In this document: positions 33,088-45,171 of the stretch, piece after piece | Numbering within the stretch: the first letter of the stretch is position 1 | Layout of the letters: the number at the start of each line of letters is the position of its first letter | NCBI RefSeq assembly: GCF_900215145.1 | Contig: NZ_OBDO01000011.1 | Location: 62,001 to 126,000, forward strand | Length of the DNA stretch: 64,000 nt | DNA from: Geodermatophilus sabuli | Lineage (GTDB): Bacteria > Actinomycetota > Actinomycetes > Mycobacteriales > Geodermatophilaceae | Direction of reading: 5' to 3' | Notes under the pieces: model-generated | What the model was told of the DNA's origin: nothing | The model's database searches: none | What the model saw: only the letters and a program-made list of their open reading frames with translations | Position numbers and translations under genes: made by a program

Positions 33088-34047
33088 ATGACCGTTCGGG
33101 TAGGGCTCGTGGGTGCCGGCGCGGTCGGTGCCCGGCACGCCCGCACGCTCGCCGCCTTCGACGACGTCGAGCTGGTCGGTGTCTGCGACCCCGTGCCGGC
33201 GGCGGCCGGGGCGCTGGCCGCGGAGCTCGGCGTGCCGGCCGTCGCGGACCTGGACCGGCTGCTCCGGGCCGGGGTCGACGCCGTCTGGTTGTGCGTGCCG
33301 CCCTTCGCGCACGGCGACCCGGAGCTGGCCGCGGTGCGCGCGGGCGTGCCGTTCTTCGTCGAGAAGCCGCTGGCCGCCGACCTGCCCGTGGCGCGCCGGG
33401 TCGCCGACGCCGTCGCCGCGGCCGGGCTGCCGACCGCGACCGGCTACCACTGGCGGCACCTGGACACCGTGGAGCGGGCCCGGCAGGTGCTGGGCGGCGA
33501 CCGGGTCCGCCTGGTCGACGTCCGCTGGTGGGGGACGACGCCCCCGGCGGCCTGGTGGCGCCGCGAGGACCGCTCCGGCGGGCAGGTCGTCGAGCAGGCG
33601 ACCCACGTGCTCGACCTCGTCCGCGTGCTCGCCGGCGAGGTCACGGAGGTGGTCGGTGCGGCGGCACCCTCCACGAGGGAGGCCCGCGACGTGCCGGACG
33701 CGACCGCCGCGGTGCTCCGGTTCCGGTCCGGCGCCGTGGGGACCGCGAGCACCTCGTGCGTCCTCCCCCTCCCGACCGCGGCTGGCCTCGACGTGGCGGC
33801 CGCCGGCGTGTCGGTCGCCCTCACCGAGACCTCGCTGCGGGTGGGTACCGCGGAGGGGGTGGAGGAGGTCATCCCCACCGTCGACGCCCGCCGTGCCGTC
33901 GACCGCGCCTTCGTCGACGTGCTCTCCGGCCGGCCCCGGGCGCCCGGGCTGGTCGACGTCGCCGAGGCACTGCGCACGCACCACCTGGCCTGCGCCGTCG
34001 CGGAGGCCGCCCGCACCGGCGCTGCGGTCCGGGTCGGGGAACCGTGA
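33088..34047 (+). CDS. Gfo/Idh/MocA family oxidoreductase
   Basis: A 319-residue NAD(P)-dependent oxidoreductase: Rossmann GLVGAGAVGARHARTL (6-21), the catalytic EKP motif (FFVEKPLAADLPVA, about 91-104), and GGQVVEQATHVLDLVR with the conserved His region of the substrate domain. Members oxidise sugars, inositols or sugar acids. GGGGAGGGGG precedes the ATG. It is the first gene of the sugar-acid catabolic cluster and 152 bases from the divergent gpgS; 106 bases separate it from the zinc dehydrogenase. Confidence 0.88.
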   Translation: MTVRVGLVGAGAVGARHARTLAAFDDVELVGVCDPVPAAAGALAAELGVPAVADLDRLLRAGVDAVWLCVPPFAHGDPELAAVRAGVPFFVEKPLAADLPVARRVADAVAAAGLPTATGYHWRHLDTVERARQVLGGDRVRLVDVRWWGTTPPAAWWRREDRSGGQVVEQATHVLDLVRVLAGEVTEVVGAAAPSTREARDVPDATAAVLRFRSGAVGTASTSCVLPLPTAAGLDVAAAGVSVALTETSLRVGTAEGVEEVIPTVDARRAVDRAFVDVLSGRPRAPGLVDVAEALRTHHLACAVAEAARTGAAVRVGEP

Positions 34048-34153: not shown

Positions 34154-35302
34154 ATGCGGGCGATGGTGTACCGGGGGCCCTACAAGATCCGGGTGGAGGA
34201 GAAGGACGTCCCGGCCATCGAGCACCCGAACGACGCGATCGTCCGCGTGACGCTCGCCGCGATCTGCGGCTCGGACCTGCACCTCTACCACGGCCTCATG
34301 CCGGACACCCGGATCGGGCACACGTTCGGCCACGAGTTCATCGGCGTCGTGGAGCAGGTCGGCTCCTCCGTGCAGCACCTGCAGGTCGGCGACCGGGTGA
34401 TGGTGCCGTTCAACATCTTCTGCGGCTCGTGCTGGTTCTGCGCGCGGGGCCTGTACTCCAACTGCCACAACGTCAACCCGAACGCCACGGCCGTCGGTGG
34501 CATCTACGGCTACTCGCACACCACCGGCGGCTACGACGGCGGCCAGTCGCAGTACGTCCGCGTGCCGTTCGCCGACGTCGGCCCGGTGAAGATCCCGGAC
34601 TGGATGCACGACGAGGACGCGGTCCTGCTGACCGACGCCGCCGCGACCGGCTACTTCGGCGCCCAGCTCGGCGAGATCGCGCAGGGCGACACCGTGGTCG
34701 TCCTCGGTGCCGGGCCGGTCGGCCTGATCGCCGCCCAGTCGTCGTGGCTGATGGGCGCCGGCCGGGTCATCGTCGTCGACCACCTCCAGGAGCGGCTGGA
34801 GAAGGCCCGCACCATGGCCTACGCCGAGACGCTGGACTACGACGAGTACGACGACATCGTGGTCGAGCTGAAGAAGCAGACCGACTTCCTCGGTGCCGAC
34901 GTCGTCATCGAGGCCGTCGGCGCGGAGGCCGACGGCAACCTGCTGCAGCACGTGACCGGGACCAAGCTCAAGCTGCAGGGCGGCTCACCGGTGGCGCTGA
35001 ACTGGGCGATCGACGGGGTGCGCAAGGGCGGCACCGTCTCCGTCGTCGGCGCCTACGGCCCGATCCCCAGCGCGGTGAAGTTCGGTGACGCGCTCAACAA
35101 GGGGCTGACCCTCCGGATGAACCAGACGCCGGTGAAGCGCCAGTGGCCCCGCATGTTCGAGCACGTGCGCAACGGCCACCTCACGCCGCGGGCGATGGTC
35201 ACCCACCGGTTCCCGCTGGAGCACATCGCCGAGGCCTACCACGTGTTCTCGGCCAAGCTCGACGGCTGCATCAAGCCGCTGGTCCTGCCCGATGCGGCCT
35301 GA
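34154..35302 (+). CDS. Zinc-dependent alcohol dehydrogenase (formaldehyde-dehydrogenase-like MDR)
   Basis: A 382-residue medium-chain dehydrogenase. The catalytic zinc site has Cys in AAICGSDLHLYHG and the GHEFIG motif; the structural zinc loop is present with C-G-S-C-W-F-C and a later Cys (NIFCGSCWFCARGLYSNCHN). The NAD site reads VVLGAGPVGLIAA. The long form and loop insertion resemble glutathione-independent formaldehyde dehydrogenases and related threonine/sorbitol dehydrogenases. The substrate could be a sugar alcohol or an aldehyde from the cluster. GGGAG lies upstream of the ATG at 34154; the next gene starts 12 bases after the stop. Confidence 0.9.
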   Translation: MRAMVYRGPYKIRVEEKDVPAIEHPNDAIVRVTLAAICGSDLHLYHGLMPDTRIGHTFGHEFIGVVEQVGSSVQHLQVGDRVMVPFNIFCGSCWFCARGLYSNCHNVNPNATAVGGIYGYSHTTGGYDGGQSQYVRVPFADVGPVKIPDWMHDEDAVLLTDAAATGYFGAQLGEIAQGDTVVVLGAGPVGLIAAQSSWLMGAGRVIVVDHLQERLEKARTMAYAETLDYDEYDDIVVELKKQTDFLGADVVIEAVGAEADGNLLQHVTGTKLKLQGGSPVALNWAIDGVRKGGTVSVVGAYGPIPSAVKFGDALNKGLTLRMNQTPVKRQWPRMFEHVRNGHLTPRAMVTHRFPLEHIAEAYHVFSAKLDGCIKPLVLPDAA

Positions 35303-35314
35303 GGAGGAGCGACG

Positions 35315-37507
<2,193 letters not shown>

Positions 37508-37522: not shown

Positions 37523-37550
37523 TGGTCGCGGCTCAGTGGTCGCGGCTCAG
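37523..37550. repeat. 14-bp direct repeat at a stop codon
   Basis: TGGTCGCGGCTCAG occurs twice in tandem (37523-37536, 37537-37550) at the junction of the converging aldolase and dehydratase genes. The second copy contains the dehydratase's stop codon and the first carries a spare copy of it. Confidence 0.6.
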
Positions 37551-39346
37551 TGGTTGTCGCGCGGGATGCCCGCGGTGTGCGCCACCCGCCGGTAGCCCAC
37601 CGCGGGACGCAGCACCATCCCCTCGTCCAGCTGGGTGACCATCGAGCGCTGGATCTCCTGCCACGGCGTCTGCGAGGCCGGCACGGGGTAGCCGCCGGCC
37701 TCCTCCAGCGCGCGCCGCCGCTCGGCCAGCTCCTCGTCGGGGAGCAGGACGTCGGCCCGGCCGGCCCCGAGGTCGATCCGGACGACGTCGCCGGTCCGCA
37801 GCAGCGCGAGCCCGCCGCCGTCGGCCGCCTCGGGAGAGGCGTTGAGGATCGACGGGGAGCCCGACGTCCCCGACTGGCGGCCGTCCCCGATGCACGGCAG
37901 CGCGTGGACGCCCGCCCGGATCAGGGCCGCCGGCGGCTGCATGTTGACGACCTCGGCCGCGCCCGGGTAGCCCAGTGGGCCGACCCCGCGGATGACCAGC
38001 AGGCACGTCTCGTCGATCTCCAGGGCGGGGTCGTCGATGCGGGCGTGGTAGTCCTCCGGTCCGTCGAAGACGACGGCGCGACCCTCCATCACGCCGGGCT
38101 GCTCCGGGTCGGACAGGTAGCGGTCGCGGAACTCCGGGGAGATCACGCTGGTCTTCATGATCGCGCTGTCGAACAGGTTGCCGCGCAGCACGAGGAAGCC
38201 GGCGTCGGGCAGCAGGGCGGTGTCGAAGGTGCGGATGACCTCGCGGTCGGTCGCCGGGGTGTCCCGGCAGTTCTCCCCGATCGTGCGGCCGTTGACCGTC
38301 CGGGCGTCCTCGTGGACCAGGCCGTGGCCCATCAGCTCGTGGACGACGGCGGGCACGCCGCCGGCGCGGTGGAACTCCTCGCCGAGGAACCGGCCGGCCG
38401 GCTGCAGGTCGACGATCAGCGGGACCGCGAGCCCCAGCTCCTGCCAGTCGGCCACGTCCAGGGGGACGCCGACGTGCCGGGCGATCGCGTTGACGTGGAT
38501 GGGGGCGTTGGTCGAGCCGCCGATGGCGGAGGTGACCACCACGGCGTTCTCGAACGCCTCGCGGGTGAGGACGTCGGACGGCCGGAGGTCCTCGTGCACC
38601 ATCTCCACGACCCGCCGGCCGGTCAGGTAGGCCATGCGGGCGCGGTCCCGGTGCGGGGCGGGGATGGCGGCGCAGCCGGGCAGGCTCATGCCGAGGGCCT
38701 CGGCGACGGCGTTCATCGTCGACGCCGTCCCCATGGTGTTGCAGTGCCCGGGGGAGGGGGCCGCGGAGGCGACCAGGTCGACGAACCCCGCCTCGTCGAT
38801 CTGCCCGGCGGCGAGCAGCTCGCGCGCCTTCCAGACGATGGTCCCCGACCCGGTCCGCACGCCGTCGTACCAGCCGTCGAGCATCGGGCCCCCGGACAGC
38901 ACGATCGCCGGGAGGTCCACCGTGGCCGCGGCCATCAGGCAGGCCGGCGTCGTCTTGTCGCAGCCGGTGGTCAGCACGACGCCGTCCAGCGGGTAGCCGT
39001 GCAGCACCTCGACCAGGCCGAGGTAGGCCAGGTTGCGGTCCAGCGCCGCGGTGGGCCGTCGCGCGGTCTCCTGGATGGGGTGCACCGGGAACTCCAGCGC
39101 CACCCCGCCGGCGTCCCGGATGCCCTCGCGCACGCGCCCGGCCAGCTGCAGGTGGTGCCGGTTGCACGGGGCGAGGTCCGAACCGGTCTGCGCGATGCCG
39201 ATGACCGGCCGGCCGGACTGGAGCTCCTCGCGGGTGAGCGCCCAGTTCAGGTAGCGCTCGACGTAGAGCGCCGTCATCCCGGGGTCGTGCGGGTCGTCGA
39301 ACCAGGCCTGGCTGCGCAGCCGCCGTGCCGGCGTTCCGTCGTCCAC
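37547..39346 (-). CDS. IlvD/Edd family sugar-acid dehydratase
   Basis: A 599-residue iron-sulfur dehydratase. The cluster ligands are visible as NRHH (C in LAPCNRHH), [14 protein letters not shown] and [31 protein letters not shown] and [17 protein letters not shown] are family signatures. The GTG start at 39346 is chosen on GGAGGAG 6 bases upstream. Sequence features such as [15 protein letters not shown] and the gene's context favour a pentonate/hexonate dehydratase (arabinonate-, xylonate-, gluconate- or galactarate-like) over branched-chain DHAD. Its product would be a 2-keto-3-deoxy acid for the kinase and aldolases nearby. It is the only minus-strand gene of the cluster. Confidence 0.9.
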
Positions 39347-39544: not shown

Positions 39545-40828
39545 ATGACCGACGAGCGGGCGCTGCCACCCGTCCCGACGGCCCGGCAGGCGCCGAGGTG
39601 GTCGGAGCTGCGGGAGGTCGTGCAGTTCCGCCGGCCGCCACTGGGGCGCACCGCGCGGCGCCTGGAACGGGCTCTGACGATCCGCGACCTGCGCGCCGCG
39701 GCCCGGCGCACCACGCCCCGCGCGGTGTTCGACTACGTCGACGGCGCCGCGGAGGAGGAGATCACCGCGGCCCGCAACGTCGCGGCCTACCGGCGGGTCA
39801 CCTTCTCCCCGGACGCCCTGCGCTCGGTCGCCGACCCCGACCCGGGCGTGGAGCTGCTCGGCCGGCGCATCGCGATGCCGCTGGCCTTCGCGCCCACCGG
39901 CTACACGCGGATGATGCACCACCAGGGGGAGGCCGCCGTCGCCTCCGTGGCCGGGCACGTGGGCGTCCCCTACGCCCTGTCGACGGTGGGCTCCACCTCC
40001 ATCGAGGACGTGCGGGCCGCCGCGCCGGACGCCGACCTGTGGTTCCAGCTGTTCTTCACGGCCGACCGGGAGCTCAACGCCGGCCTGCTGGAGCGGGCGG
40101 CGGCGGCCGGGTACTCGACGCTGCTGCTCACCGTCGACACGACCGTCTCCGGGATGCGCTACCGGGACGTCGTCAACGGCCTCACCATCCCGCCGACCCT
40201 CACCGCCCGGACCGTGCTGAACATGTCCCGGTTCCCGCGCTGGTGGTTCGACAAGCTGACCACCGGCGGGATGACCTTCGCCTCGCTGACCGGTGTCCCC
40301 GGCAACCCGACCCCCGGCGAGGTCGCCAGCATGATGTTCGACCCGTGCCTGGACGTCTCCGCACTGGACTGGTTGCGTGATCGGTGGCGGGGTTCCCTCC
40401 TGGTGAAGGGCGTGACGACGCCCGCGTCGGCGCGGGAGGCCGTGGAGCACGGCGCCGACGGCGTGGTGGTCTCCAACCACGGCGGCCGCCAGCTGGACCG
40501 CTCCGCCGCGACGCTGGACGTGCTGCCGGCGATCCGCGCGGCGGTGGGCCAGTCGGCCACGGTCCTCATCGACGGCGGGGTCCTGCACGGGCAGGACGTC
40601 GTGGCGGCCCGCGCGCTGGGGGCGGACGCCGTGCTGATCGGCCGGGCCTACCTGTACGGGCTCATGGCCGGTGGCCAGCGGGGCGTGGCCCGTGCCTACG
40701 AGATCCTCGCCGAGGAGTACCTGCGGTCCATGCAGCTGCTCGGCGCGCGGTGCAGCGCGGACCTGTGCGAGCGGCACGTCGCGTTCACGCCGCACGGCAC
40801 CGGGGACTACCCGAACGTCTCGGTCTGA
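39545..40828 (+). CDS. FMN-dependent alpha-hydroxy-acid oxidase/dehydrogenase (LldD-like)
   Basis: A 427-residue member of the L-lactate dehydrogenase/glycolate oxidase family. It shows [34 protein letters not shown], the catalytic block [13 protein letters not shown] with His and Arg, and [25 protein letters not shown] for FMN phosphate binding. It oxidises L-lactate, glycolate or a similar 2-hydroxy acid to the oxo acid. In this cluster glycolate (from glycolaldehyde released by Dahms-type cleavage of a pentonate) or lactate are likely substrates. ATG at 39545; divergent from the dehydratase. Confidence 0.92.
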
Positions 40829-40917: not shown

Positions 40918-42360
40918 ATGGTCACGACCCGTCCGGGAGGACGACCGTCCTCGGTGGTGGACCTGTTCCCGACCAAGTACCTGGCCGCACCGTCGGTGCG
41001 GGACATGCCGGAGCCGCCGGCCAGTTTCCGGCACGTCATCGGCCCGGGGATCATCGCCGCCGGCGTGGGCATGGCCAGCGGTGAGTTCATCCTCTACCCC
41101 TACATCGCCTCGCAGGTCGGCCTGGTCTTCGTCTGGGCGGCCTTCGTGGGCCTGGCCACCCAGTACTTCCTCAACATGGAGATCGAGCGCTACACGCTCG
41201 CCACCGGGGAGACCGCACTCACCGGCTTCAGCCGGTACTGGCGGCACTGGGGCCTGGTGTTCGCGATCATGGCCTACTTCGCCAACATCTGGCCGGGGTG
41301 GGCGACGAGCTCGGCGACGCTGGTCACCTACCTCGTCGGCGGCAGCGTGGTGCCCATCGCGATCGGCTTCCTCCTGCTGATCGGCATCATCCTGACCATG
41401 GCGCCGGTGGTGTACCAGGCCCTCGAGAAGATCCAGATGGTCAAGGTCGCCGCCGTCCTGCTGCTCATCGTCGTCGCCTCCGTCGCCGTGATCGGTGCAT
41501 CGACCTGGGCGGACGTGCCGCAGATCGTCACCGAGGCCGGGGTGCCGGCCGAGGAGCTCGGGTTCGCGCTGCTGCTGGGCGCGCTGGCCTTCGCGGGAGC
41601 CGGTGGCGGGCAGAACCTCTGCCAGAGCAACTGGATCCGCGACAAGCGATTCGGCATGGGCGCCTACGTCCCGCGGATCGTCAGCCCGATCACCGGCCAC
41701 CCGGAGGCCGCACCGTCGACCGGCTTCGTGTTCGAGCCGACGCCGGAGAACCTGGGCCGGTGGCGGCGCTGGTGGAAGTTCGCCAACACCGAGCAGCTGA
41801 CCACGTTCGTGCTGATCAGTTTCCTGACGATCCTGTTCACCTCGCTGCTGGCCTACGCCACGGTGTTCGGCCAGGAGGGCCTGGCCAGCGACATCTCCTT
41901 CCTCGAGGCCGAGGGGAACGTCCTCAACGACACCGTCGGCGGCTGGTTCGGCACGTTCTTCTGGATCATCGGCGCGTTCTCGCTGTTCGCCGCCGCGCTG
42001 GGCATCGTGGACTACACCAGCCGGCTGGGGGCCGACGTCCTCAAGACCGCGTACCTCCGCAACGCCAACGAGAGCAAGATCTACTTCGCGCTGGTGTGGG
42101 GCCTGGTCGCGATCGGCATCATCGTGCTGCTGTCCGGGCTGTCGCAGCCGCTGATCCTGCTGGTCATCTCCGCCGTCACCGGCGGGCTGATGATGTTCAT
42201 GTACTCGGCGCTGCTGCTCCTGGTGAACCGGCGGACGCTGCCGCGGGAGATCCGACCCGGCGCCGTCCGGATCGTCGCCCTCGTCTGGGCCTTCCTGCTC
42301 TTCGGGTTCCTCTCCGTGCTGACCTTCAACGAGCAGCTGCGGACGCTCTTCGGTGGGTGA
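40918..42360 (+). CDS. Nramp-fold transporter lacking the metal-site motifs
   Basis: A 480-residue membrane protein with about 11 helices and recognisable Nramp relatedness ([20 protein letters not shown] at helix 1; [42 protein letters not shown] at helix 6). True Mn/Fe transporters have DPGN in helix 1 and MPH in helix 6; here these read GMASGEF and GAGGGQN, so the Asp, Asn and Met metal ligands are gone. It also carries a large loop (residues about 240-285) not usual in Nramp. It sits between the 2-hydroxyacid oxidase and the PfkB kinase, whose start overlaps its stop by 8 bases, so a sugar-acid or related substrate is more likely than a metal. Confidence 0.8.
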
Positions 42361-43315
42361 ACCGGTGGGCGCCGTCCCGCGGGTGGTCACCGCGGGGGAG
42401 ACGATGGTGCTGGTCGTCCCCACCGCCCCCGGCCGGCTCCGCCACGCCGGCGCGGTGACGCTGTCGATCGGCGGCGCGGAGAGCAACGTGGCGATCGGCC
42501 TGTCCCGGCTCGGCGTCCCGGCGGCCTGGGTGAGCGCGCTGGGGGAGGACGAGCTCGGCGAGCTGGTGCTGCACCGGGTGCGCGCCGAGGGGGTGGACAC
42601 CAGCGCCGTGCGGCGGGTGCCGGACCGGCCCACCGGGCTCTACCTGCGCGAGGAGGTCGCCGGCGCGCTGCGGGTGTACTACTACCGCCGCGGGTCGGCT
42701 GCCTCGACCCTGGCGCCGGGTGCCTTCGACCCGGCGGTCCTCGAGGGCGCGGCCTTCCTGCACCTCACCGGGATCACCGGGGCGCTGTCGCCCGAGTCCG
42801 CCGAGTTCCTGCCGTGGGCGGCGCGGACGGCCCGGGAGGCCGGCGTCCGGGTGAGCTACGACGTCAACTACCGCAGCCGGCTGTGGGAGCCGGCGGCCGC
42901 CCGCGCCGCCACCGAGGCGCTCCTGCCGCACGTCGACGTCCTGCTCGTGGGCGACGAGGAGGCCCGCGCCCTGTGGGGGGAGGACGACGAGACCTGCCTG
43001 GAGCGCCTCGCCGCCGCCGGCCCCGACGAGGTGGTGCTCAAGCTCGGCGCCCGCGGCTGCGCGGCATCGGTGGGCGGCGAGCGGCTGACCTCCCCGGGGT
43101 TCCCGGCGCGCCAGCTCGACCCGATCGGGGCGGGGGACGCGTTCGCCGCCGGCTACCTCGCCGCGAGCCTGTGGGGACTCGACGCCACCGAGCGCATGCG
43201 GACGGCCAACGCCATGGGCGCCTTCTGCGTGCAGGACCTCGGCGACTACGAGGGCCTGCCCAGCCGCCGGGAGCTGAGCGCGTTCCTGGACCGGACCGTC
43301 GACCTGGGGAGGTGA
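42353..43315 (+). CDS. kdgK: PfkB family sugar kinase, 2-keto-3-deoxygluconate kinase-like
   Basis: A 320-residue ribokinase-fold kinase: IGGAESNVAIGLSRLG (PfkB signature 1), SYDVNYRSRLWEP (the DxNxR motif typical of KDG kinases), and LDPIGAGDAFAAGYLAA (signature 2 with catalytic Asp). GTG at 42353 overlaps the transporter's end; GTG 42365 is an alternative. It would phosphorylate the keto-deoxy acid made by the dehydratase for cleavage by the KDPG-type aldolase. The symbol is by similarity; a fructokinase-like role cannot be excluded. Confidence 0.85.
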   Translation: MGEPVGAVPRVVTAGETMVLVVPTAPGRLRHAGAVTLSIGGAESNVAIGLSRLGVPAAWVSALGEDELGELVLHRVRAEGVDTSAVRRVPDRPTGLYLREEVAGALRVYYYRRGSAASTLAPGAFDPAVLEGAAFLHLTGITGALSPESAEFLPWAARTAREAGVRVSYDVNYRSRLWEPAAARAATEALLPHVDVLLVGDEEARALWGEDDETCLERLAAAGPDEVVLKLGARGCAASVGGERLTSPGFPARQLDPIGAGDAFAAGYLAASLWGLDATERMRTANAMGAFCVQDLGDYEGLPSRRELSAFLDRTVDLGR

Positions 43316-43320
43316 CGAGG

Positions 43321-44205
43321 ATGACCGCCGGCGACCCCGCCATGCTCCTCGAGGGCGTCTACGTCGCCAACGTGACGCCCTTCCGCGACGACGCGCGGTA
43401 CAGCATCGACGTCGACGCCTACCTCGCCCACGTCCGGTGGCTGGCCGGCCAGGGGGTCACCGGCGTCATCCCGTTCGGGACCAACGGGGAGGGCCCCTCG
43501 GTGTCGGCGAGCGAGAAGCGGACCGTGCTCCGGGCGCTCCTGGCCGACCCCGGCGGGCTGTACGTCGTCCCGACGGTCGCCGAGGGCAATCTGCCGGACA
43601 CCCTGGACCTGCTGGCCGAGCTGGAGGACCTGCCCGTGCGGGCGGTCATGGTGCTGCCGCCCTACTTCTTCAAGCCGGTGTCGGCCGAGGGGCTGCGACC
43701 GTTCTACGAGCGCGTCCTGGCCGCCACCCGGCACCCGGTCGTCGTCTACCACGTCCCCAAGTACGCGGTGCCCGTCCCCGCCGACCTCGTGACCAGCCTG
43801 CCGGTGTGGGGGGTCAAGGACTCCGGCGGGGAGGCCGGCTACGCCGCGACCGTCTCCGCGGCGGGGAAGGGGGTGCTCGTCGGCACCGAGGACGACCTGC
43901 CGGCCCGGCTGCCGACCGCCCAGGGCGCGATCTCCGCGCTGGCCAACATCGTCCCCGAGCAGGTCGTCGCGCTCTACGGGCACGTCCGCGGCGGCCGGTC
44001 GGCGGAGGCGGCGGCACTGTCCGCCCACCTGCAGCGGGTGCGGGCGATGACCAAGGAGCACGCCGCTCCCGGCGTGCTCAAGCGCGTCGCCCAGCGCCGG
44101 CACGGGCACCCGATGGGGACCGTGCGCCCGCCGCTGGTCCCGGTCCCGGACTCGTTCGACGCCGCGGCCGCGACCGAGCGCGCCGTGGCGGTCCCGGTCG
44201 GCTGA
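43321..44205 (+). CDS. DapA/NanA family aldolase (2-keto-3-deoxy acid aldolase-like)
   Basis: A 294-residue class-I aldolase of the dihydrodipicolinate-synthase superfamily: GTNGEGPS (53-60), catalytic Tyr143 in VVYHVPKY and Schiff-base Lys166 in VWGVKDSGG. The KDSGG context fits non-biosynthetic members (KDG aldolase, KdgD-type dehydratase, hydroxybenzylidenepyruvate aldolase-like) rather than DapA proper. It would cleave an unphosphorylated keto-deoxy acid to pyruvate plus an aldehyde, giving the cluster a second branch beside kinase plus KDPG aldolase. GAGG directly precedes the ATG; 5 bases from the kinase. Confidence 0.88.
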   Translation: MTAGDPAMLLEGVYVANVTPFRDDARYSIDVDAYLAHVRWLAGQGVTGVIPFGTNGEGPSVSASEKRTVLRALLADPGGLYVVPTVAEGNLPDTLDLLAELEDLPVRAVMVLPPYFFKPVSAEGLRPFYERVLAATRHPVVVYHVPKYAVPVPADLVTSLPVWGVKDSGGEAGYAATVSAAGKGVLVGTEDDLPARLPTAQGAISALANIVPEQVVALYGHVRGGRSAEAAALSAHLQRVRAMTKEHAAPGVLKRVAQRRHGHPMGTVRPPLVPVPDSFDAAAATERAVAVPVG

Positions 44206-44217
44206 GGCGGGGGCGGC

Positions 44218-45171
44218 ATGCGGGTGCTCGTCACCGACGCCGACTACGGGGAGCTCGACATCGAGGCCGACGTCCTCACCGCCGCCGGCCACGAGCTGCG
44301 CACCGCGCAGTGCCGGACACCGGAGGACGTCATCGCGGCGGCCCGGGACGTCGACGCCGTCCTCGTGCAGTACGCCCCGGTCACCGCCGAGGTGCTGGCG
44401 GCGCTGCCGCGGCTGCGGCTGGTCAGCCGCTACGGCGTCGGGGTCGACGTCGTGGACCTCGACGCCGCCCGCGCCCGGGGCGTGTGGGTCTGCAACGTCC
44501 CCGACTACGGCACCTCCGAGGTCTCCCTGCACGCCGTCGCGATGCTGCTGGCCCTGCTCCGCAACCTCCCCGAGCACGACCGGCAGGTGCACGCGGGGCG
44601 GTGGGACCACCGGGCCGGTGGGGTGCTACAGCGCCCCGGCCGGCTCACCCTGGGTGTGGTGGGCCTCGGCCGCATCGGGCGGATGACGATGGAGCGGGCG
44701 GCGCCGTGGTTCGGCGGCTGCGTGGGCTACGACCCGCACCTGCCGGAGGAGGCCTGGCCGCCCGGCGTCGAACGGGTCGGGCTGGAGGAGCTCGCCGCCC
44801 GGAGCAACGCCGTCACGCTGCACCTGCCGCTGACCCCGCGGACGCGGGGCCTCGTCGGGGCCGACCTGCTGGCGCGGCTCCCCCCGGCGTCGTACCTGGT
44901 CAACACCTCGCGCGGGGGCCTGGTGGACCTCGACGCCGTGCTGGCGGCGCTGGCGGACGGGCGGCTGGCCGGCGTCGCCCTCGACGTGCTCCCCGAGGAG
45001 CCGCCGCCGACGGGGCACCCCCTGCTGGACCACCCGCGCGCCCTGCTCACGCCGCACGTCGCGTGGTACTCCGCGGAGGCCGAGGCGGAGCTGCGCCGGA
45101 AGGCGGCGGAGAACGTCGTCACGTGGGCACGGACAGGGCGCCCCACGTACCCCGTCGTCGACGGCCGCTGA
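44218..45171 (+). CDS. 2-hydroxyacid dehydrogenase (phosphoglycerate-dehydrogenase-like)
   Basis: A 317-residue D-isomer-specific dehydrogenase, second of the cluster: LGVVGLGRIGRMTMERA for NAD, the LVSRYGVGVDVVDLDAA entry segment, VNTSRGGLVDLDAVLAAL with the catalytic Arg, and LLTPHVAWYS with the catalytic His. It is more SerA-like than the copy at 35919-36860. Likely a glyoxylate/hydroxypyruvate reductase or an acid dehydrogenase of the pathway. ATG at 44218, 12 bases after the aldolase, so it is the last gene of a transporter-kinase-aldolase-dehydrogenase operon. Confidence 0.88.
   Translation: MRVLVTDADYGELDIEADVLTAAGHELRTAQCRTPEDVIAAARDVDAVLVQYAPVTAEVLAALPRLRLVSRYGVGVDVVDLDAARARGVWVCNVPDYGTSEVSLHAVAMLLALLRNLPEHDRQVHAGRWDHRAGGVLQRPGRLTLGVVGLGRIGRMTMERAAPWFGGCVGYDPHLPEEAWPPGVERVGLEELAARSNAVTLHLPLTPRTRGLVGADLLARLPPASYLVNTSRGGLVDLDAVLAALADGRLAGVALDVLPEEPPPTGHPLLDHPRALLTPHVAWYSAEAEAELRRKAAENVVTWARTGRPTYPVVDGR

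What the first reader, a model, noticed from the sequence alone, without database searches (positions are those of the whole stretch)
40918..42360. Nramp-fold transporter without metal ligands, embedded in a sugar-acid operon
The protein is recognisably Nramp-related, but the helix-1 DPGN motif reads GMASGEF and the helix-6 MPH motif reads GAGGGQN, removing the Asp/Asn/Met that hold Mn or Fe in characterised family members. It also has a loop insertion of about 45 residues. Its start follows an FMN 2-hydroxyacid oxidase, its stop overlaps a KDG-type kinase, and the downstream genes are a keto-deoxy-acid aldolase and a dehydrogenase; no other transporter lies in the 33-45 kb cluster. The sequence change and context suggest an Nramp-fold carrier for an organic (sugar-acid) substrate, which would be a new specificity for the fold.
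Basis: partly seen in the sequence, partly recalled or inferred. Interest (0 to 1): 0.7.

Follow-up and report, generated by a model that had tools for sequence, protein, structure and literature searches.

The report
Nramp-fold carrier for hydroxy acids
A bacterial protein that databases label as a metal transporter lacks the residues that hold metal and travels as a gene pair with an enzyme that oxidises hydroxy acids, so it more likely carries small organic acids into the cell; some of its relatives sit beside lactate, glycolate and sugar-acid genes in other bacteria and in archaea.

Summary
Window 40918-42360 encodes a 480-aa Nramp-fold carrier (NF037982 541 bits; Foldseek's first 26 PDB rows all Nramp-type). 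Helix-1 DPGN reads ASGE and the helix-6 segment has no Met or His; Glu56 replaces the ligand Asn. Its >=85%-identical clade (c1) lies directly beside one FMN 2-hydroxyacid oxidase in 11 of 13 loci. In 200 genomes of the order, that oxidase (>=76%) and the carrier occur in the same 7, adjacent in 7 of 7 (these 7 are among the 11). Distant relatives (44-50%, c4) lie near lutABC, glcDEF or acid-sugar genes in 19 of 25 loci of 8 kb or more, controls 0 of 33. Against: the sister clade c2 (63-75%) has 0 of 70; 5 of 7 c1 genomes also hold an LctP-type permease; a few relatives lie near iron or siderophore genes. Best reading: an Nramp-fold carrier of 2-hydroxy-monocarboxylates (glycolate, lactate, aldonates), inferred from context, not assayed. 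An organic substrate for an Nramp-related protein has a published precedent (PxpT, 5-oxoproline), so this is a new variant. Main rival: metal supply to neighbouring enzymes.

The parts
40918..42360 (+). Nramp-fold carrier (P0001, 480 aa), motif ASGE / FAGAGGGQN
41041..41115 (+). helix-1 segment [25 protein letters not shown] (residues 42-66); D->A53, N->E56
41563..41646 (+). helix-6 segment (residues 216-243) with Gly-rich break FAGAG, no Met/His
41647..41778 (+). extended helix 6-7 loop (residues 244-287), about 33 residues longer than in the C11 paralogue
39545..40828 (+). FMN-dependent 2-hydroxyacid oxidase/dehydrogenase (PF01070), adjacent gene in 11 of 13 loci of the clade
42353..43315 (+). 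PfkB kinase, nearest to 2-keto-3-deoxygluconate kinases (below equivalog cut-off)
43321..44205 (+). DHDPS-family aldolase/lyase (below equivalog cut-offs)
44218..45171 (+). D-isomer 2-hydroxyacid dehydrogenase
37547..39346 (-). IlvD/EDD-type dehydratase (NF009560, 1046 bits), candidate sugar-acid dehydratase
36857..37507 (+). KDPG/KHG aldolase
35919..36860 (+). second D-isomer 2-hydroxyacid dehydrogenase
34154..35302 (+). zinc-binding alcohol dehydrogenase family
33091..34047 (+). GFO/IDH/MocA oxidoreductase

Best explanation
The protein is a LeuT/Nramp-fold secondary carrier that imports a 2-hydroxy-monocarboxylate (glycolate, L-lactate or an aldonate-type sugar acid) for the catabolic genes beside it. 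Proposed mechanism: the Gly-rich segments of helices 1 (ASGE) and 6 (FAGAGGGQN) replace the metal ligands and hold the carboxylate and hydroxyl of the substrate, as in amino-acid carriers of the same superfamily; the invariant Glu56 handles the coupling ion or a substrate hydroxyl. Inside, the acid is oxidised by the FMN 2-hydroxyacid oxidase, or dehydrated, phosphorylated and split by the dehydratase, kinase and aldolase. Shown: the fold, the loss of the metal ligands, the pairing with the FMN oxidase, and repeated linkage of some relatives to non-homologous hydroxyacid pathways. Inferred: substrate class, direction, coupling and binding geometry.
For: (1) Reciprocal pairing: of 200 genomes of the order, the >=85% carrier is in 7 and the >=76% oxidase in the same 7, adjacent in 7 of 7, in the window's family (4 genomes) and a second family (3); the next listed oxidase hits are <=61%. 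The pair persists in L034, L173 and L174, which lack the kinase and aldolase. (2) Loci >=8 kb with one of ten core markers (glcD, E, F; lutA, B, C; FMN oxidase; DUF1537; PdxA2; LarA): c1 11/13, c4 19/25, MntH controls 0/13, other stretches 0/20. (3) Different, non-homologous systems: glcDEF, in four of the five such c4 loci with or near a tartronate-semialdehyde-reductase or HpcH/HpaI gene; lutABC and acid-sugar kinase-PdxA-lactate racemase; glcDEF with malate synthase beside a 27%-identical relative; a gene matching the GlcD marker near 4 of 5 haloarchaeal relatives fetched. A further SGE-motif clade lies beside UxaA, acid-sugar kinase/PdxA or mannonate dehydratase in 3 of 6 loci viewed. (4) No other transporter domain in the window cluster; no PF02652 permease in this genome. 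(5) Precedent: C. glutamicum PxpT, whose best TCDB matches are NRAMP-family proteins, is required for growth on 5-oxoproline (PMC13274462, passages read).
Against: Sister clade c2 (63-75%, same motifs): 0 of 70 loci with a core marker; c3 0 of 5. The markers were chosen after seeing c1 and c4 loci; much of c4 is one family (f32); the 7 reciprocal genomes are among the 11 c1 loci. 18 of 28 carrier genomes, and 5 of 7 c1 genomes, also have a PF02652 permease, and in 3 of 5 haloarchaeal loci one lies in the same cluster. Relatives near metal genes exist: an iron ABC transporter in an Aureimonas c2 locus, siderophore-type genes in Roseomonas, CorA in L047; a haloarchaeal copy follows an ArsR-family regulator. 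Glu56 could be a hard-ion ligand. YcsG and MumT are reported to raise cell Mn (PMC10448178, PMC5050338, passages read). No transport data for this clade were found.
Confidence: 0.62

Rival explanations
1. Metal supply: the protein still imports a divalent cation (Mg2+, Mn2+ or Fe2+, perhaps hydrated, via Glu56 and backbone oxygens) and is co-located with enzymes that need metal or Fe-S clusters.
For: Many neighbours belong to Fe-S or metal-dependent families (GlcF, LutB, IlvD/EDD, POR, UxaA; metal needs from general knowledge). NRMT shows that the fold can carry Mg2+ with altered ligands (PMC8806188, passages read). YcsG and MumT are reported as Mn importers though in catabolic operons (PMC10448178, PMC5050338). 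Some relatives lie near an iron ABC transporter, siderophore-type genes, CorA or an ArsR-family regulator.
Against: The most constant partner in the window clade is an FMN enzyme not known to need metal (general knowledge). The Asp that PMC8806188 calls universally conserved in SLC11 proteins is absent. Neighbouring regulators include FadR/GntR, DeoR, IclR and LysR types; no MntR, DtxR or Fur was annotated in the records viewed, but regulators were not surveyed systematically. A canonical MntH exists elsewhere in the genome.
Confidence: 0.2
2. Metal-chelate symport: the carrier moves the complex of a divalent metal with a 2-hydroxy-carboxylate, in the manner of metal-citrate carriers.
For: Would reconcile the reported Mn effects of YcsG and MumT with organic-acid contexts; 2-hydroxy acids chelate metals (general chemistry). 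One invariant Glu in the helix-1 segment.
Against: No direct evidence; 5-oxoproline, the precedent substrate, is a poor chelator (general knowledge).
Confidence: 0.08
3. Hitch-hiking: a carrier of another substrate (whatever c2 carries) that was drawn by chance into a mobile hydroxyacid cassette.
For: c1 is nested within c2 in the tree, and c2 has no core-marker neighbours (0 of 70).
Against: 7 of 7 reciprocal pairing with the oxidase in two families and with changed flanks, and association in c4 and other distant clades.
Confidence: 0.1

Closest known systems
PxpT / YcsG (5-oxoproline-operon Nramp-related proteins)
   Same: Nramp-type protein in an organic-acid catabolic operon; PxpT is needed for growth on 5-oxoproline (PMC13274462). 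This genome seems to have such a gene too (C22, beside pxpA-, pxpB- and pxpC-like genes).
   Different: Very distant from this protein (hhalign probability 0.4% between A2 and the C22 copy); helix 1 of the C22 copy reads GPGF, not SGE; other substrate.
NRMT (EleNRMT, Mg2+/Mn2+)
   Same: Nramp-related protein with altered ligands; Foldseek ranks 17-18.
   Different: NRMT keeps the helix-1 Asp (DxxG per PMC8806188); here it is Ala, and Glu replaces the Asn.
Canonical SLC11/MntH (DraNramp, ScaDMT, EcoDMT)
   Same: Fold: first 26 Foldseek rows are Nramp-type (one is an integrative YcsG model), DraNramp 6d91 first with TM 0.66 on the query.
   Different: DPGN and MPH motifs absent; catabolic context.
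Nramp-related 'G-motif' groups of PMC12873925
   Same: Lack of the canonical motifs; the preprint's figure legend calls the groups other than NRMT-like and the MntG-containing one entirely uncharacterized.
   Different: Whether this clade is one of those groups could not be checked; its alignment and figures were not seen.
LctP-family glycolate/lactate permeases (GlcA, LldP; names recalled)
   Same: Proposed job: hydroxyacid import beside oxidation genes.
   Different: Unrelated family (PF02652), not found in this genome.

Membership tests
Canonical SLC11/Nramp metal transporter | Nramp fold | tested here: met
   AlphaFold2 model pLDDT 91.2, pTM 0.90; Foldseek ranks 1-26 Nramp-type
Canonical SLC11/Nramp metal transporter | helix-1 DPGN (Asp and Asn ligands) | tested here: not met
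   ASGE in the window protein
Canonical SLC11/Nramp metal transporter | helix-6 Met/His (MPH) | tested here: not met
   no Met or His in residues 216-243
Canonical SLC11/Nramp metal transporter | divalent metal transport | not testable with these tools
   needs an assay
NRMT magnesium transporter | DxxG helix-1 and TxxA/T helix-6 signature (PMC8806188) | tested here: not met
   helix 1 reads AxxE; the helix-6 half could not be placed in register
NCBIfam NF037982 'Nramp family divalent metal transporter' | score over the curated cut-off | tested here: met
   541.5 bits, cut-off 50; the function in the family name is not supported by the ligand test
Pfam PF01566 Nramp | match to the model | tested here: not met
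   no hit at 1e-3; not among the genome hits
2-hydroxyacid carrier (proposed) | conserved linkage to 2-hydroxyacid oxidation genes | tested here: inconclusive
   met in c1 (11/13) and c4 (19/25), controls 0/33, and reciprocal pairing 7/7; not met in c2 (0/70) and c3 (0/5)
2-hydroxyacid carrier (proposed) | transport of the acid | not testable with these tools
   needs an uptake assay
PxpT/YcsG 5-oxoproline group | adjacent pxpABC genes and close sequence | tested here: not met
   no pxp-type domains among the window proteins scanned; hhalign probability 0.4% to the genome's own PxpT-like copy

The most novel reading that the evidence does not exclude
The xSGE-motif branch of Nramp-related proteins, seen here in Actinomycetota, Alphaproteobacteria, Bacteroidota and haloarchaea and named 'Nramp family divalent metal transporter' in the plasmid records viewed, is a large family of hydroxycarboxylate and sugar-acid carriers; the Nramp fold thus holds a deep organic-acid branch beside its metal branch.
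Probability: 0.38. Interest if true: 0.82.

Novelty: new variant of a known kind. Interest (0 to 1): 0.66.

Why it matters
Nramp proteins are textbook metal transporters, and a 2026 preprint calls the sequences of its Nramp plus Nramp-related alignment 'likely metal transporters' of mostly unknown specificity (PMC13060092, passage read; whether this clade is in that alignment is not known). If this clade carries hydroxy acids, genes now named 'Nramp family divalent metal transporter' are misnamed, some lactate, glycolate and sugar-acid pathways gain a candidate permease, and the evolution of metal selectivity in the fold can be tested from an organic-substrate relative. It also bears on the open dispute whether YcsG/PxpT moves Mn2+ or 5-oxoproline.

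Tried and rejected
That the KDG kinase/aldolase is the constant context was rejected: 8 of 13 c1 loci have it, 11 have the FMN oxidase. That all close relatives share the context was rejected: c2 0 of 70, with neighbours such as a class-II aminoacyl-tRNA synthetase, Dus, chorismate synthase, SelO and CorA. Mutual exclusion with LctP permeases was not found (18 of 28 genomes have both). phmmer and a profile search of PDB sequences found no Nramp chain, so residue mapping rests on this genome's own MntH. The helix-6 register against MPH could not be fixed. An AlphaFold2 control on the own MntH failed (pLDDT 59, 11 sequences), so the continuous helix 1 in the window model (residues 43-67) has no control and is not used. 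VIA-align was unavailable. The first gene caller was poor and was replaced; gene counts depend on that script, so the marker test was repeated with tblastn on the DNA. A strict motif regex passed 60 of 69 c1-c4 tree rows; 7 rows did not match the pattern and 2 matched but held an excluded residue. Literature: searches of Nramp with glycolate, lactate, altronate, DUF1537 or sugar-acid terms showed no paper on such a carrier among the rows listed (15 of 36, 0 of 0, 4 of 4, 8 of 2,933, 12 of 392); only listings were seen, so this is weak evidence of absence.

Full report
Observation. The window (75.6% G+C) belongs to a 5.5-Mb genome; the nearest rows of the carrier are Geodermatophilaceae. ORF 40918-42360 is intact and encodes 480 aa. 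NCBIfam NF037982 matches over its full length at 541.5 bits. Pfam's PF01566 does not reach 1e-3, while AA_permease_2 just passes its cut-off. The AlphaFold2 model built from 62 sequences has mean pLDDT 91.2 and pTM 0.90. Foldseek's first 26 PDB rows are Nramp-type (row 19 is an integrative YcsG model), with amino-acid carriers following. The fold is Nramp; the ligands are not.

Site. Against this genome's own MntH (DPGN and MPH on contig C6), both hhalign (probability 47%, E 2e-4) and MAFFT place ASGE over DPGN, so Asp->Ala53 and Asn->Glu56. Glu56 is invariant in the 62-row alignment. Helix 6 reads [15 protein letters not shown]; its register against MPH differs between alignments, but no Met or His lies in residues 216-243. 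The helix 6-7 loop is about 33 residues longer than in the C11 paralogue, which matches the A2 profile at 98.7%.

Operon. Order: FMN 2-hydroxyacid oxidase, carrier, PfkB kinase, DHDPS-family protein, 2-hydroxyacid dehydrogenase; upstream a KDPG aldolase, an IlvD/EDD dehydratase on the other strand, a second 2-hydroxyacid dehydrogenase, a zinc dehydrogenase and a GFO/IDH oxidoreductase. Several NCBIfam hits fall below their cut-offs, so exact substrates are open. Of 19 other proteins scanned from 30.9 to 51.5 kb none has a transporter domain; two have no Pfam match.

Relatives. The tree (95 rows, quick method, midpoint root) puts the window in clade c1 (13 rows, support 100) within c2. In the 13 c1 loci the FMN oxidase is the adjacent gene in 11 and a KDG-type kinase or DHDPS-family gene is near in 8. 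The two without the oxidase are L036 (no marker) and L038 (2-hydroxyacid dehydrogenase next to it).

Reciprocal test. In 200 genomes of the order, the carrier at >=85% identity occurs in 7 and the oxidase at >=76% in 7. They are the same 7 genomes, four of the window's family and three of another, and the genes are adjacent in all 7; the next oxidase hits are at most 61%. These 7 are among the 11 c1 loci above, so the two counts are not independent. Four other genomes of the genus (G057, G146, G170, G176) have neither at these identities, so the pair behaves as a unit gained or lost together.

Wider family. c4 carriers (44-50% identity) lie near lutABC, glcDEF (with a tartronate-semialdehyde reductase in L145, L147 and L183), or a four-carbon acid-sugar kinase-PdxA-lactate-racemase cluster. 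In tblastn on the DNA with ten core markers, loci of at least 8 kb scored: c1 11 of 13, c4 19 of 25 (20 of all 30), c3 0 of 5, c2 0 of 70, MntH loci 0 of 13, other stretches from five carrier genomes 0 of 20. Fisher against the 33 controls gives p=6e-9 for c1 and 2e-10 for c4, both ignoring relatedness. The markers were chosen after seeing c1 and c4 loci. Much of c4 is one family, f32, which I take to be Rubrobacteraceae because contig G269:C2 has the length of a Rubrobacter indicoceani plasmid. Two MntH controls have a 2-hydroxyacid dehydrogenase nine genes away, which is not a core marker. With a wider list of 18 markers within 8 genes, 3 of 71 c2 loci have one; the best is Pseudonocardia xinjiangensis L093 with KDPG aldolase-KDG-type kinase-carrier. 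A c2 locus in Cellulomonas (L056) follows PrpD-, PEP-mutase- and citrate-synthase-family genes. A 27%-identical relative in the window's order lies beside glcDEF and malate synthase. In five loci of 29-34% identity the near genes are 2-oxoacid:ferredoxin oxidoreductase subunits; only 1 of these 5 has a core marker.

Named records. Rubrobacter indicoceani carries two Nramp-type genes: one directly before a UxaA family hydrolase, one beside lutABC and the acid-sugar kinase-PdxA-racemase set. Of nine haloarchaeal plasmid records hit I viewed five (L204-L208): the GlcD marker matches in 4, in genes annotated as FAD-binding and (Fe-S)-binding, which I read as D-lactate-dehydrogenase-like. Three of the five also have an annotated L-lactate permease in the cluster, and two have a branched-chain amino-acid ABC transporter. 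Of eight records with relatives of the UxaA-linked paralogue I viewed six: UxaA in Rubrobacter, acid-sugar kinase and PdxA in Streptomyces albus, mannonate dehydratase in Halocatena salina, a GH43 glycosidase in Microscilla; an SLC13 permease in Skermanella and siderophore-type genes in Roseomonas. An Aureimonas c2 copy has isocitrate lyase two genes upstream and an iron ABC transporter further downstream.

Permeases elsewhere. PF02652 is absent from this genome but present in 18 of 28 carrier genomes, 5 of the 7 c1 genomes among them, so the carrier is not a simple replacement for LctP.

Literature. PMC12873925 (passages and a figure legend read) describes Nramp-related groups without the canonical motifs, all but two uncharacterized. 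PMC13274462 (passages read) shows that C. glutamicum PxpT is needed for growth on 5-oxoproline. PMC10448178 (passages read) argues that YcsG, 50% identical to PxpT, imports Mn. PMC5050338 (passages read) makes the same case for MumT in a urea-carboxylase operon. PMC8806188 (passages read) shows Mg2+ transport by NRMT, which keeps the helix-1 Asp. So an organic substrate for an Nramp-related protein is in print; a hydroxyacid carrier was not among the rows listed by five searches.

Conclusion. The most likely function is import of a 2-hydroxy-monocarboxylate (0.62). The strongest support is the reciprocal oxidase pairing and the recurrence of unrelated hydroxyacid pathways around distant relatives. 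The strongest objections are the bare context of c2, the co-occurring LctP permeases and the invariant Glu56, which leave metal supply (0.20), hitch-hiking (0.10) and chelate symport (0.08) open.

Noticed in passing
own genome contig C22, locus L171 5902-10111: This genome also carries a PxpT/YcsG-like Nramp-related gene directly before a PxpA-like gene and two genes that look like pxpB and pxpC, followed by an IclR-like gene: a second Nramp-type protein in an organic-acid operon. The pxp and IclR names rest on recalled sequence features, not on a family search.
   Followed up: partly
own genome contig C11, locus L170 9092-10378: A fourth Nramp-type paralogue with a GAGD helix-1 motif, behind two short genes (115 and 82 aa) of unknown role.
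   Followed up: no
L203 4614-8754 (Rubrobacter indicoceani plasmid): A distant SGE-motif Nramp-type gene lies 22 bp before a UxaA family hydrolase gene.
   Followed up: partly
L157, L158, L161, L162, L163: A GLGE-motif Nramp-type clade (29-34% identical to the window protein) lies near 2-oxoacid:ferredoxin oxidoreductase genes in 5 of 5 loci, all from genomes of one family.
   Followed up: partly
L101, L102, L103, L106 (Saccharopolyspora): c2 carriers sit between an MFS-type gene and a LysR-type regulator gene, a conserved trio of unknown role (names from L102, the rest by clustering).
   Followed up: no
L043, L045, L057, L060, L063, L069, L072 (Amaricoccus, Aureimonas): Alphaproteobacterial c2 carriers are 68-72% identical to the actinobacterial window protein, which suggests transfer between phyla.
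   Followed up: no
window 35315-35905: 196-aa protein inside the cluster without any Pfam match at 1e-4.
   Followed up: no
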